64,000 nt of DNA from Erysipelotrichaceae bacterium (GTDB lineage Bacteria; Bacillota_I; Bacilli_A; Erysipelotrichales; Erysipelotrichaceae), in contig JAAZCQ010000024.1 of the NCBI GenBank assembly GCA_012513225.1, forward strand, positions 1 through 64,000, read 5' to 3'. Position numbers and translations under genes: made by a program. The notes below the pieces were generated by a model. That model had not been told where the DNA came from. It worked only from the letters and a program-made list of their open reading frames with translations, and did not search any database. Position 1 is the first letter of the stretch. Each line of letters opens with the position of its first letter. Below are positions 13,341-16,815 of this stretch, piece by piece.

Positions 13341-13491
13341 TTTAATATCCTCCATTAGATCAATCTCTATAATCTTTTTTAAAATATTAGTATTATTTAT
13401 AAAAATTTTAATCTTTTCTACTATCTTTAGTATACTAAAATGTACAACGTTATAGTTTATAAAATGGTAATTTCAAATTTAATTTAATAAT

Positions 13492-13531
13492 AAAAAATGT
13501 TTGAACTATAAATTTAGTACAAACATTTTTT
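13492..13531 (-). terminator. Terminator of the NifX/MinD-like operon
   Basis: A perfect 12-bp inverted repeat (AAAAAATGTTTG at 13492-13503 with its complement at 13520-13531) and 16-base loop. It ends in a T run when read on the minus strand, just after the last gene of the operon. Confidence 0.85.
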
Positions 13532-13548
13532 ATTAATTTATATTTTAT

Positions 13549-13905
13549 TTATTCACCACACTCATCATGGTGTTTATGTTCATGACAAACAGAGCCTGTA
13601 GATTTTAATAAACCTTTTAGATAAGCATCTACTGCTATTTTAACATCACCAGTTGCACCAACAATCACTTCAATATTTTTTTCATTAAAAATATCAATAG
13701 CTCCACTTCCCATACCTCCAGAAATGATAACATTTACACCCAAATCATTTAAGAAATTTGGTAAAAAACCAGGTTTATGTCCAGGGTTTGGTATGGCTTC
13801 ACTTTTATTAACTTGTCCATTTTCTGTATCAAAAATTACAAAATCTTTACAATGTCCAAAATGCTCACTTACTTTACCATTTTCACTTGCTACAGCTATT
13901 CTCAT
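13549..13905 (-). CDS. NifX/NifB-fold (dinitrogenase Fe-Mo cofactor family) protein with His/Cys tail
   Basis: A 118-residue protein of the ribonuclease H-like fold used to carry Fe-Mo cofactor precursors in nitrogenase assembly, also found in the orange protein of anaerobes. It begins MRIAVASENGKVSEHFGHC, the family hallmark, and has the Gly-rich GGMGSGAI stretch. The tail carries many His and Cys residues (VCHEHKHHDEC), which suggests metal binding. GGAGG precedes ATG 13905. It is the last gene of the six-gene operon; no nitrogenase genes are in view, so a nif role is unlikely. Confidence 0.85.
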   Translation of the reverse strand: MRIAVASENGKVSEHFGHCKDFVIFDTENGQVNKSEAIPNPGHKPGFLPNFLNDLGVNVIISGGMGSGAIDIFNEKNIEVIVGATGDVKIAVDAYLKGLLKSTGSVCHEHKHHDECGE

Positions 13906-13952
13906 TATTATATCCTCCATTTTTATAATTTATTAGCTTATTAATAATTCTT

Positions 13953-14816
13953 TCAATCAAATAGTATATCTAATACTTCCTTATAAATTACCTCAACTGC
14001 TTTTTTAGAAATACAATCTACATCAACTATACTCATTCCACTATTTATTGCCTTTATTGCAGCAGTATCAAATGGAATTTTACCAGCAAAATTTATTTTG
14101 TTTTTTTCACAAAACTCTTCAATTTTTTCTGTTTTCTCAATATTAGTATCATACTTATTTACACATACTGCAATCTTAACTTGAAATTTTTGTGCAGTCT
14201 TTATAATTCTATCCATATCACTTATTCCCGATAGAGAAGGTTCAGTAACTATTAAAACCATATCAACACCGCTCAAAGATGCAATTACAGGACAGCCTAT
14301 TCCTGGTGAACCATCAATTATTGCCAGTTTTGTTTCAATCGCTTCATTCTTCATTTGTTTTTTCACTTCACTAACTAACATTCCAGAAGTTCCACTTCCC
14401 ATTTTTAATTGTGCTGTTGAAAATACTTTTTCATTATCTGAATAAAGCATTAATTCACCATCTACCGATTGAACTAAAGATATAGCTTTTACAGGACAAA
14501 CAAATTCGCAAACTCCACACCCTTCACAAGCATATTGATCAACTTTATAATATGGACTAGATGTTATTGCATCAAACCTACAATTTTCTATACATTTATT
14601 GCAACTAATACAAATATTCGTATCAATACTAGCTTTTGGTAATCCATAATAATCACTAATTATAGGCCTGTTTTCATGTTTTGTTACAAGATGCAAATTA
14701 GGAGCATCAATATCACAATCTGCGTAAACTTTAGCATTAAAAAGTTTTATAAAAGCACTTGCAACAGTTGTTTTTCCAGTGCCTCCCTTTCCACTAAGGA
14801 TTAACAGTTGTTTCAT
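13953..14816 (-). CDS. MinD-superfamily P-loop ATPase with inserted 2x[4Fe-4S] ferredoxin domain
   Basis: A 287-residue ATPase. The deviant Walker A is KGGTGKTT at 10-17. A ferredoxin insert holds two full cluster motifs: Cys69, 72, 75, 79 and Cys97, 100, 103, 107. The switch region IDGSPGIGCPV follows. This architecture matches the ATPases of the orange-protein (Orp) complex in sulfate reducers and similar uncharacterised operons of clostridia and archaea. It overlaps its paralogue upstream by 23 bases, implying coupled synthesis and perhaps a heterodimer. Ribosome site AAAGGAGG fits ATG 14816. Confidence 0.88.
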   Translation of the reverse strand: MKQLLILSGKGGTGKTTVASAFIKLFNAKVYADCDIDAPNLHLVTKHENRPIISDYYGLPKASIDTNICISCNKCIENCRFDAITSSPYYKVDQYACEGCGVCEFVCPVKAISLVQSVDGELMLYSDNEKVFSTAQLKMGSGTSGMLVSEVKKQMKNEAIETKLAIIDGSPGIGCPVIASLSGVDMVLIVTEPSLSGISDMDRIIKTAQKFQVKIAVCVNKYDTNIEKTEKIEEFCEKNKINFAGKIPFDTAAIKAINSGMSIVDVDCISKKAVEVIYKEVLDILFD

Positions 14817-15651
14817 TTCCTGCCTCCTTTATAACTTTATCTAGTAAATTAGAAAATAATTGATTATATTTTCCACTTTTTTCAACAGCTATTTCCCCAT
14901 TTGAGTTAATTTTTCCTAATTCTGTATCAAACGGTATTTTTTCAATTATTTTTATATTATTTTTTACACAAAATTTTTTTACTGGATTTTCTTCTTCTAA
15001 ATACTTATTTATTATTACTCCAAAAGGTTTATTAAACAATCTTACCAGTTCATATACCATATTAAGATTATGTACTCCAAATATAGTTGGTTCTGCTACT
15101 AATATACAGTAATCAACATCTCTAATTGTCTCCATTACTATACAAGCACTGCCTGGAGGACAATCTATAATTGTCAATTTATCCTTATTTTTATTTTCAT
15201 CAATCAACTTTTTTACTATTGGTATACCTGAAGCTTCTCCGATATTTAAGATTCCAGTATATATAGATATATTATTGTAATATCCTTTTTCAACTTTTCC
15301 AATTACTTTTTCAGTTTCAAAAAGGGCATCTTCAGGGCAAACTAGCATGCATCCTCCACAGGAATGACAAATTTCATCAAATATAAATAATTTATTTTTT
15401 ATATAAGCTAGTGCATTAAACTTACAAAATTCAACACATTTCCTGCATCCATTACATTTTTCATTATCTACTTTAGGAATTTTAACTGTCACATCTTCTT
15501 TTTGAATATTTTTTGGTTTGAAATATAAGTGCCCATTAGGCTCTTCAACATCACAATCAATATATATTGATTCTTTTGCTACAGTAGACAAATTCACTGA
15601 AACAAGAGTTTTCCCTGTGCCTCCTTTTCCACTTAGTACAGCAATTTTCAT
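14794..15651 (-). CDS. MinD-superfamily P-loop ATPase with inserted 2x[4Fe-4S] ferredoxin domain (paralogue)
   Basis: A 285-residue paralogue of the following gene. The Walker A KGGTGKT begins at residue 9. Cluster motifs are Cys66, 69, 72, 76 and Cys95, 98, 101, 105, and the switch motif is IDCPPGSACIV. I chose ATG 15651, one base after the stop of the upstream NifX-like gene, because the ATPase fold starts exactly there (MKIAVLSGKGG). The open frame runs on to 15693 but that part only shadows the upstream gene. There is no good ribosome site, so re-initiation from the upstream gene is likely. Confidence 0.87.
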   Translation of the reverse strand: MKIAVLSGKGGTGKTLVSVNLSTVAKESIYIDCDVEEPNGHLYFKPKNIQKEDVTVKIPKVDNEKCNGCRKCVEFCKFNALAYIKNKLFIFDEICHSCGGCMLVCPEDALFETEKVIGKVEKGYYNNISIYTGILNIGEASGIPIVKKLIDENKNKDKLTIIDCPPGSACIVMETIRDVDYCILVAEPTIFGVHNLNMVYELVRLFNKPFGVIINKYLEEENPVKKFCVKNNIKIIEKIPFDTELGKINSNGEIAVEKSGKYNQLFSNLLDKVIKEAGNETTVNP

Positions 15652-15652
15652 A

Positions 15653-16021
15653 TTAGTTTTCGTTGTGTCCATGAAATCCTGCATGTATTTCATCTAACAA
15701 ATTTAGTTTTTTATCAATAAATCCTTGAATATTCTCTTTTGCAGATGGATAAACTGTTTTAAATATTTTTATATCTGCAGAATTTAAAACTTCAGCTGCT
15801 TTCTCTCCACAACGAGGTGTTAATAAAGCTTCTACTTCATTATCTACAATTATCTGAGCTGCTTTAATACCTGCACCACCAACATCAGATGCAGCAAAAT
15901 TATCTATAAAGTTACTTTCTTGTGTTTCAATATCATAAATAAGAAAATATGGTGATCTTCCAAATGAAGCACATACATTTGTTTCAATATTTTTCTCATT
16001 TACAGGAATTGCGATTTTCAT
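15653..16021 (-). CDS. NifX/NifB-fold (dinitrogenase Fe-Mo cofactor family) protein
   Basis: A 122-residue cofactor-carrier-like protein starting MKIAIPVNEKNIETNVCASFG and containing the conserved DVGGAGIKAAQ and a late TPRCGEKA. It ends in a short His-containing tail (GFHGHNEN). It is a paralogue of the last gene of the operon, so the operon holds two carriers and two ATPases. GGAG precedes ATG 16021. By analogy with orange protein, it may hold a metal-sulfur cluster; that is inference. Confidence 0.84.
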   Translation of the reverse strand: MKIAIPVNEKNIETNVCASFGRSPYFLIYDIETQESNFIDNFAASDVGGAGIKAAQIIVDNEVEALLTPRCGEKAAEVLNSADIKIFKTVYPSAKENIQGFIDKKLNLLDEIHAGFHGHNEN

Positions 16022-16044: not shown

Positions 16045-16413
16045 TTATTTTATATTTAAATTTTCAAAATGCTTTCTTCTATGTTTATGACATCCTCTAC
16101 CACAACTTTCTTCATCATTATCACAAAGTTTATAATCCCCACCCTTTATGATTAGTATTTTTCCATTAACTAATGAATCAGCTATCTTTTTTCTTGCCAT
16201 TACATAAATTCCTTGAACAGTACTACGTGCAATATTCATTTGAGTTGCACACTCTTCTTGTGTAAAACCATTCAAGTCAATTAATCTAATTGTTTCATAT
16301 TCATCTACACTCATAATAATATGATTATCAATATTTTCTGATGCATCAAGAGGACCAAATCTATTACTTATAGGTAAACAACAAACCTTTCTCCATTTTC
16401 TAGGTCTTGCCAT
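16045..16413 (-). CDS. DUF134 family DNA-binding protein
   Basis: A 122-residue protein of the DUF134 family, small helix-turn-helix proteins that accompany NifX/MinD-like genes in anaerobes. The start [14 protein letters not shown] is typical. The helix-turn-helix spans about residues 50-85 ([19 protein letters not shown]). The C-terminus is Cys/His-rich ([19 protein letters not shown]), possibly a metal sensor. It is the obvious candidate to regulate this operon through the inverted repeat around the promoter. TGGAGG precedes the ATG. Confidence 0.88.
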
Positions 16414-16476: not shown

Positions 16477-16740
16477 TTATAAATTATTTAATTGATTGTC
16501 AATAAAATCTAGTTTATTTTGAAGTTCGATTTTTTTATTTTTAAGTAATTCTCTATCATTTAGAGTAATATCTTGTTCAAAGCCATTACCTCTATTAAAT
16601 CTACATCCTACTTCATTTCTACAATTTAATCTACGGCCTGGTCTTCTTCCTTGTCCAAACATATTCATTTCTTCATTAAAGCGTCCTAGTCCTCTTCTAG
16701 ATTCTACTTTATTATTGCCCATACCTCTTCCTCTTTTCAC
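16477..16740 (-). CDS. Small Arg/Gly-rich DUF5320-like protein
   Basis: An 87-residue protein. The N-terminal half is rich in Arg, Gly and Asn (GQGRRPGRRLNCRNEVGC) with two Cys. The C-terminal third is a predicted coiled coil (about residues 60-87). It resembles the small DUF5320-type proteins that lead NifX/DUF134 operons in other anaerobes; this match is by pattern only. The start is GTG 16740, 8 bases after AGGAGG; the next GTG upstream (16749) is too close to that site. It is the first gene of the operon. Confidence 0.68.
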   Translation of the reverse strand: MKRGRGMGNNKVESRRGLGRFNEEMNMFGQGRRPGRRLNCRNEVGCRFNRGNGFEQDITLNDRELLKNKKIELQNKLDFIDNQLNNL

Positions 16741-16757
16741 TAATTTCACCTCCTAAC

Positions 16758-16815
16758 GTTAATGACATATGCCATCTATCTATATTATACACTATTTGTG
16801 GCATATGTCATTAAC
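16758..16815 (-). promoter_or_regulatory. Promoter inside a perfect 17-bp inverted repeat (operator candidate) of the NifX/MinD operon
   Basis: GTTAATGACATATGCCA at 16758-16774 is exactly repeated inverted at 16799-16815, separated by 24 bases. The spacer carries a minus-strand TATAAT (16789-16784), and the right arm covers the -35 position. Each arm contains CATATG, itself a palindrome. The placement suggests two operator half-sites that bracket RNA polymerase. Confidence 0.65.

What the first reader, a model, noticed from the sequence alone, without database searches (positions are those of the whole stretch)
16758..16815. Promoter enclosed by a perfect 17-bp inverted repeat
Two identical arms 41 bases apart (start to start) bracket the -10 and cover the -35 of the NifX/MinD-like operon. 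Each arm contains CATATG. The DUF134 protein encoded in the operon, with a Cys/His-rich tail, is the natural candidate to bind it. No binding site is established for DUF134 as far as I know.
Basis: partly seen in the sequence, partly recalled or inferred. Interest (0 to 1): 0.55.

Follow-up and report, generated by a model that had tools for sequence, protein, structure and literature searches.

The report
Conserved operator pair of DUF134 operons
The repeated DNA around this promoter is very probably the docking site of a small, uncharacterised DNA-binding protein (DUF134) that switches its own metal-cluster operon, and the same site turns up next to DUF134 genes across many anaerobic bacteria.

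Summary
In detail: a perfect 17-bp inverted repeat (16758-16774 / 16799-16815), absent from 40 shuffles of the window. Each arm holds a near-palindrome, TGRCATATGYCA, found exactly only at these two places in the 1.55-Mb genome. Of 80 DUF134 loci picked by protein similarity alone, 57 carry such a pair within 700 bp upstream. Among 321 genomes of another Bacillota class, 37 of 39 with a spaced pair encode DUF134, against 136 of 321 overall. The distal site carries the -35 (TTGACA in 79 of 87), TATAAT follows 16-17 bp on, and the second site mostly starts 11-12 bp later. A DUF134 clade with another recognition helix has GTGCATATGCAC instead (8 of 8). DUF134 proteins over 200 aa (NifX fusions) have a site in 19 of 20. 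Best reading: DUF134, a sigma-region-4-like protein, is a local autorepressor of NifX/MinD/Mrp-type metal- or Fe-S-cluster operons, competing with sigma for the -35. Binding, repression and signal are inferred. I found no published DUF134 operator in the open-access library searched.

The parts
16799..16815 (-). distal operator: 17-bp arm with near-palindrome TGGCATATGTCA (16799-16810); on the minus strand it overlaps the -35
   Evidence: conserved in relatives
16806..16811 (-). -35 hexamer ATGACA (TTGACA in 79 of 87 related pairs), inside the distal operator
   Evidence: sequence; geometry in relatives
16784..16789 (-). -10 hexamer TATAAT, 16 bp from the -35
   Evidence: sequence; -10 of at least 5/6 in 84 of 87 related pairs, spacer 16 in 63 and 17 in 13 of those 84
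16777..16777 (-). transcription start, inferred from the -10 only
   Evidence: inference
16758..16774 (-). proximal operator: 17-bp arm with near-palindrome TGACATATGCCA (16763-16774), about +4 to +20
   Evidence: conserved in relatives
16750..16755 (-). ribosome-binding site AGGAGG directly after the proximal operator; likely start codon GTG at 16741-16739
   Evidence: sequence
16477..16749 (-). small DUF5320-like protein, first gene of the operon (weak match, 23.8 bits against a cut-off of 27); the listed start is probably three codons too early
16045..16413 (-). DUF134 protein (PF02001, 79.6 bits), sigma-70-region-4-like HTH, Cys/His-rich tail: predicted binder of the operators
15653..16021 (-). 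NifX/ORP-type protein (PF02579)
14794..15693 (-). MinD/Mrp-type ATPase with 4Fe-4S ferredoxin motifs
13953..14816 (-). second MinD/Mrp-type ATPase with 4Fe-4S ferredoxin motifs
13549..13920 (-). second NifX/ORP-type protein (PF02579)

Best explanation
The inverted repeat is a pair of operators for the DUF134 protein encoded 345 bp downstream in the same operon. Each operator is a 20- to 22-bp palindrome of the form TTATNNNCATATGNNNATAA, read by a dimer of the sigma-region-4-like helix-turn-helix. One operator is built over the -35 hexamer (its half-site TTGACA is itself a -35 sequence) and the other lies just past the transcription start. When bound, DUF134 keeps sigma-A region 4 off the -35 and blocks the start region, so the DUF5320-DUF134-NifX-MinD-MinD-NifX operon is repressed. 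Release follows a signal tied to the operon's products: a metal, a sulfide-bridged metal cluster or the Fe-S/redox state, sensed by conserved cysteines or, in fused relatives, by a NifX domain. Shown by computation: the site, its conservation, geometry, near-confinement to DUF134 genomes and change with the DUF134 clade. Inferred: binding, dimerisation, repression rather than activation, and the signal.
For: 57 of 80 loci picked by protein similarity have the pair. In 181 loci with dissimilar upstream DNA, 87 have a pair upstream and 5 downstream, none in 20 shuffles of each (36 of 38 pattern-selected loci inflate the 87, the split by source is). 37 of 39 genomes with a spaced pair have DUF134 against 136 of 321, Fisher p 2e-13. 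30 of 41 pair places lie 20-796 bp upstream of a DUF134 gene and point at it. The outer triplet is GTG in 8 of 8 RGT[FL]-helix proteins; for the commonest helix (TTV) it is YGR in 78 of 116, other in 2, none recognised in 36. 19 of 20 DUF134 proteins over 200 aa have a site 22-68 bp upstream; six of six such proteins scanned have a C-terminal NifX domain. Several sites away from DUF134 lie before NifX, Mrp or NifU-like genes. A near-consensus -35/-10 lies under the operators, as expected for a strong promoter that needs repression. Sigma-region-4 resemblance by sequence and structure.
Against: No binding or expression data. The R[QPS]T[FY] clade rarely has the site (pairs in 3 of 32), so self-regulation through this site is not universal. 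The GTG switch is one clade plus one lone row, so residue-to-base mapping is weak; L020 and L203 keep TGA with an altered helix residue, and L015 and L262 have other triplets with an unaltered one. All 40 pair-bearing genomes scanned also have Crp/Fnr-type HTHs, whose sites (recalled) can resemble TTGAC-N4-GTCAA. The structural matches are weak by score (Foldseek E 0.13 or worse; Z at most 7.1). Spacing of 36-39 bp is not a whole number of helical turns, so same-face cooperation is not implied. 23 of 80 loci gave no pair (four had under 700 bp upstream; L059, L073 and L096 have one farther up).
Confidence: 0.74

Rival explanations
1. The sites are bound by a Crp/Fnr-family regulator (FNR- or HcpR-like), because TTGAC-ATAT-GTCAA resembles recalled sites of that family; DUF134 is only a passenger in the operon.
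For: 40 of 40 pair-bearing genomes scanned have Crp/Fnr HTH matches; in G396 and G605 such a gene lies within 25 bp of the operator pair.
Against: The middle ATAT is as conserved as the half-sites (98-100%). There is usually one pair per genome, not a broad regulon. Crp/Fnr HTHs were found in all 14 control genomes, yet only 2 of 185 DUF134-less genomes had the pattern, both 24 bp apart and without a -10. The outer triplet follows the DUF134 clade. No Crp/Fnr family is among those conserved in the 81 loci clustered.
Confidence: 0.1
2. DUF134 binds here but activates: it sits at the -35 and recruits RNA polymerase, as a sigma-region-4 mimic.
For: The protein resembles sigma region 4, and the distal site lies where sigma region 4 binds.
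Against: The -35 and -10 are already near consensus, and a second site sits just past the start, which fits blocking better than recruiting.
Confidence: 0.13
3. The repeat acts in RNA, as a hairpin or leader switch.
For: A perfect inverted repeat could pair if transcription began upstream of both arms.
Against: The -10 lies between the arms, so only one arm is transcribed; what is conserved is two palindromes at promoter-linked positions with variable spacing (28-42 bp).
Confidence: 0.02
4. Chance repeat of an AT-rich genome.
For: The window is 73% A+T.
Against: 0 of 40 shuffles; conserved in relatives.
Confidence: 0.005

Closest known systems
orp1/orp2 operons of Desulfovibrio vulgaris (sigma-54, DVU2106 and IHF; PMC3897727 and PMC6345978, passages read)
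   Same: Same kind of products: ORP-type protein and ATPases with two [4Fe-4S] motifs; palindromic regulator sites; DVU2106 is reported to repress its own sigma-70 promoter.
   Different: There an enhancer-binding protein with sigma-54 activates two divergent operons; here a sigma-70-type promoter carries DUF134-linked palindromes over the -35 and past the start.
MrpORP of Desulfovibrio (PMC6345978, passages read)
   Same: An RGTF-type DUF134 gene (L197) precedes a protein with the same domains, ParA/Mrp ATPase plus NifX/ORP.
   Different: No DUF134 protein is mentioned in that paper's held text.
Sigma-70 region 4 bound to -35 DNA (for example 2h27)
   Same: Best sequence and structure resemblance of the DUF134 HTH; the operator half-site TTGACA is a -35 hexamer.
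   Different: Sigma region 4 binds one asymmetric hexamer within a holoenzyme; here two half-sites face each other in a palindrome, which implies a free dimer.
UPF0122-type sigma-4-like small proteins (1xsv; 1s7o)
   Same: Small stand-alone proteins with a sigma-4-like HTH; listed among the structural matches.
   Different: No operator or NifX link was examined for them here.

Membership tests
DUF134 / UPF0251 (PF02001) | match to the Pfam profile over its cut-off | tested here: met
   79.6 bits against 27, profile positions 5-96 of 98
DUF134 operator family (proposed here) | TTATNNNCATATGNNNATAA-type palindrome upstream of the DUF134 operon | tested here: met
   two copies in the window, the outer TTAT/ATAA reading TTAA in the window; relatives
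DUF134 operator family (proposed here) | site bound by DUF134 protein | not testable with these tools
   needs a gel shift or footprint
Sigma-70 region 4-like HTH | sequence and fold resemblance | tested here: met
   Sigma70_ECF 23.4 bits over its 21.1 cut-off; Sigma70_r4_2 23.0 bits, under its 25.7 cut-off; AlphaFold HTH pLDDT about 90, top PDB matches -35-binding domains but E 0.13 and Z at most 7.1
ORP-type NifX/MinD cluster | NifX/ORP protein with ferredoxin-bearing MinD-like ATPases in one operon | tested here: met
   NifX in 65 and MinD in 53 of 81 loci
ORP-type cluster of D. vulgaris | sigma-54 promoter with enhancer-binding protein | not tested
   a sigma-70-type -35/-10 is present; sigma-54 elements were not searched for
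Crp/Fnr-type operator | conserved half-sites with an unconserved middle (recalled) | tested here: not met
   middle ATAT 98-100% conserved in 87 pairs

The most novel reading that the evidence does not exclude
DUF134 proteins are a family of cluster-sensing repressors that turned a sigma-factor -35-reading domain into a palindrome-reading dimer. They compete with sigma for the -35 itself and release it when a NifX/ORP domain, fused or encoded next door, takes up or loses a metal-sulfide cluster. They would be the dedicated switch of NifX/ORP/Mrp cluster operons in anaerobic Bacillota.
Probability: 0.35. Interest if true: 0.78.

Novelty: new variant of a known kind. Interest (0 to 1): 0.6.

Why it matters
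PF02001 is named as a family of unknown function, and the operons it sits in (ORP, NifX, MinD-ferredoxin, Mrp) are poorly understood in anaerobes. A family-wide operator gives the protein a testable job, a ready probe for binding assays, and a way to find its targets in any genome. The DUF134-NifX fusions point to what the signal may be.

Tried and rejected
Tried and dropped. RNA hairpin reading: the -10 lies between the arms. Chance repeat: 0 of 40 shuffles. Broad regulon in this genome: no other exact site; of the eight one-mismatch places six lie inside ORFs of at least 90 aa, and their matrix scores are 10.9 or less. De novo motif for the R[QP]T[FY] clade: k-mer counts over 32 loci gave nothing convincing. 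Excluding Crp/Fnr by absence: failed, all 40 genomes have matches. Control with NifX genes in DUF134-less genomes: 60 of the 185 were searched, 14 had NifX, giving 17 loci, of which 2 had a CATATG with at least 2 of 3 symmetric flanks, against 132 of 203 DUF134 upstream regions and 14 of 203 downstream regions. Tree: the careful search did not finish, so the quick tree was used. Literature: 'DUF134' gave 22 papers; of the five I looked into, four matched longer names or showed none of it in the passage (DUF1343, DUF1345, DUF1349) and one named a DUF134 protein as without known function (PMC7565180). 'UPF0251' gave 1, a mutation table; 'COG1342' 1, listing seen only. The site strings gave an E. 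coli CRP consensus table and listings unrelated by title. One wider search was seen as a listing only. The 2011 orp paper (PMC3133258) is not held.

Rows dropped before counts: one search dropped identical proteins (203 to 200) and loci sharing a 40-mer upstream (200 to 181). One search took 80 of the DUF134 places listed, skipping most that already had a pattern-selected locus and stopping before the weakest; the list itself was cut by the tool. In one search four loci (L069, L075, L078, L111) had under 700 bp upstream and are counted as misses. Of the 41 pair places, 11 were not near a listed DUF134: G469 has a DUF134-like ORF close by (L137), G637 and G385 precede NifX, and the other 8 were taken as chance by eye and not followed.

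Full report
What is there. The window carries a perfect 17-bp inverted repeat at 16758-16774 and 16799-16815, 24 bp apart. It is the longest such repeat with a gap of 60 or less in the window, and 40 dinucleotide shuffles gave none as long. Each arm contains a near-palindrome, TGRCATATGYCA. In the whole genome held (1.55 Mb, 80% complete) exact matches occur only at these two places. On the minus strand the order is: distal operator with ATGACA as -35, 16 bp, TATAAT, inferred start near 16777, proximal operator, AGGAGG, GTG. The operon that follows encodes a small DUF5320-like protein, DUF134, NifX, two MinD-type ATPases with ferredoxin motifs, and a second NifX.

Conservation. From 80 loci found by similarity to the DUF134 protein alone, 57 have a pair of sites with at most four mismatches in total within 700 bp upstream. 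The consensus across 87 pairs is GTTATTGACATATGYCANWAAC for the distal site; the proximal site mirrors it, with its outer half better conserved. In 181 loci with dissimilar upstream DNA, pairs occur in 87 upstream regions, 5 downstream regions, and in none of 20 shuffled sets. The 87 include loci that had been fetched by the pattern itself; split by source the counts are 5 of 21, 48 of 76, 36 of 38 (pattern-selected) and 23 of 82.

Geometry. The -35 position of the distal site reads TTGACA in 79 of 87; a -10 of at least five of six is present in 84 of 87; the spacer is 16 bp in 63 and 17 bp in 13 of those 84; the proximal site starts 11 or 12 bp after the -10 in 48 of those 84; site spacing is 38-39 bp in 53 of 87 and 36 in 9. 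So one site is welded to the -35 and the other lies just past the start. These are near-consensus promoter elements, which is why I prefer repression.

Who binds. Three lines point to DUF134. First, co-occurrence: in 321 genomes of the class of Anaerovirgula, 39 have a spaced pair (reversed control 1), and 37 of these 39 have a DUF134 gene against 136 of 321 overall; the two exceptions are spaced 24 bp and lack a -10. In 30 of 41 places the pair lies 20-796 bp upstream of a DUF134 gene and in its direction. In the window's own phylum the pattern is rare, 6 of 295 genomes. Second, the site follows DUF134 through different neighbourhoods. DUF134 proteins of over 200 aa carry a site within 400 bp in 19 of 20, and six of six scanned have a C-terminal NifX domain. 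DUF134 genes of the RGT[FL] type carry a GTGCATATGCAC version; in five of the six that I read an Mrp-type ATPase gene follows, and the one scanned is Mrp plus NifX (L197). Third, that outer-triplet change accompanies a change in the recognition helix: 8 of 8 RGT[FL] proteins have GTG, whereas of 116 proteins with the commonest helix (TTV) 78 have YGR, 2 another triplet and 36 no site recognised. On the tree this is one clade plus one lone row, so it counts as one or two events.

Results against. The R[QPS]T[FY] clade mostly lacks the site (pairs in 3 of 32), and k-mer counts found no substitute. 36 of 203 loci have no CATATG in the upstream stretch at all (167 of 203 have one). Crp/Fnr-type HTHs exist in all 40 pair-bearing genomes scanned, and in two genomes such a gene abuts the site, so this rival is argued down, not excluded. 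One NifX locus from a DUF134-less genome carries TGACATATGTCC (L275).

Targets. Most genomes with a pair have just one. Where a pair or single site lies away from DUF134, the genes behind it mostly belong to the same theme: NifX (L154, L054), NifX plus DUF5320 (L296), Mrp plus NifX (L297), a NifU N-domain protein and a cation-efflux protein with a NifX tail (L106), and a glutamate-synthase-like protein (L104) (Pfam was run on L106, L104, L054, L154 and L296, the rest are read by eye). DUF134 was found elsewhere in G195, G385 and G637, so it could act in trans there. G170, with a pair and no -10, has no DUF134.

The protein. DUF134 resembles sigma-70 region 4 by sequence. The AlphaFold model (mean pLDDT 73, HTH about 90) matches -35-binding domains among the first, but with modest scores. 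No solved DUF134 structure was found by sequence. In 141 short RTTV-type proteins cysteines at positions 11, 55 and 97 are present in 94-99% and at 104 and 108 in about 80%, which would suit a metal or cluster; this is inference.

Mechanism. Most likely DUF134 dimers occupy both palindromes, deny sigma its -35 and block the start, and are released by a signal linked to metal-sulfide or Fe-S clusters. That the half-site TTGACA is itself a -35 hexamer, and that the protein looks like the domain that reads -35 hexamers, makes direct competition the simplest picture. Binding, dimerisation, repression and the signal remain to be shown.

Known work. The Desulfovibrio orp operons encode similar proteins but are run by sigma-54, DVU2106 and IHF (PMC3897727, PMC6345978 and PMC4641369, passages read). 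My searches of the open-access library turned up no DUF134 binding site; most subscription papers and all bioRxiv preprints are not covered.

Noticed in passing
L106 2486-3637 (and L070): A cation-efflux (CDF) transporter with a C-terminal NifX-type domain, behind a NifU-like gene and the same operator pair.
   Followed up: partly
L015 1498-3210 and L022: DUF134-NifX fusion followed by two ArsP_1-like permease genes (permeases scanned in L015 only), with operator variants GAACATATGTTC and GTGCATATGCCC.
   Followed up: partly
R[QPS]T[FY] clade, for example L234, L259: A clade of DUF134 proteins with longer Cys-rich tails and mostly no CATATG operator; its site, if any, is unknown.
   Followed up: partly
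window 13488-13535: Perfect 16-bp A+T-rich inverted repeat just downstream of the last NifX gene, possibly a terminator.
   Followed up: no
window 16739-16749: The listed GTG start of the DUF5320-like ORF overlaps the ribosome-binding site; the in-frame GTG at 16741-16739 is the likelier start.
   Followed up: no
G396:C70 and G605:C113: A Crp/Fnr-type gene lies within 25 bp of the operator pair on the same strand as DUF134.
   Followed up: no
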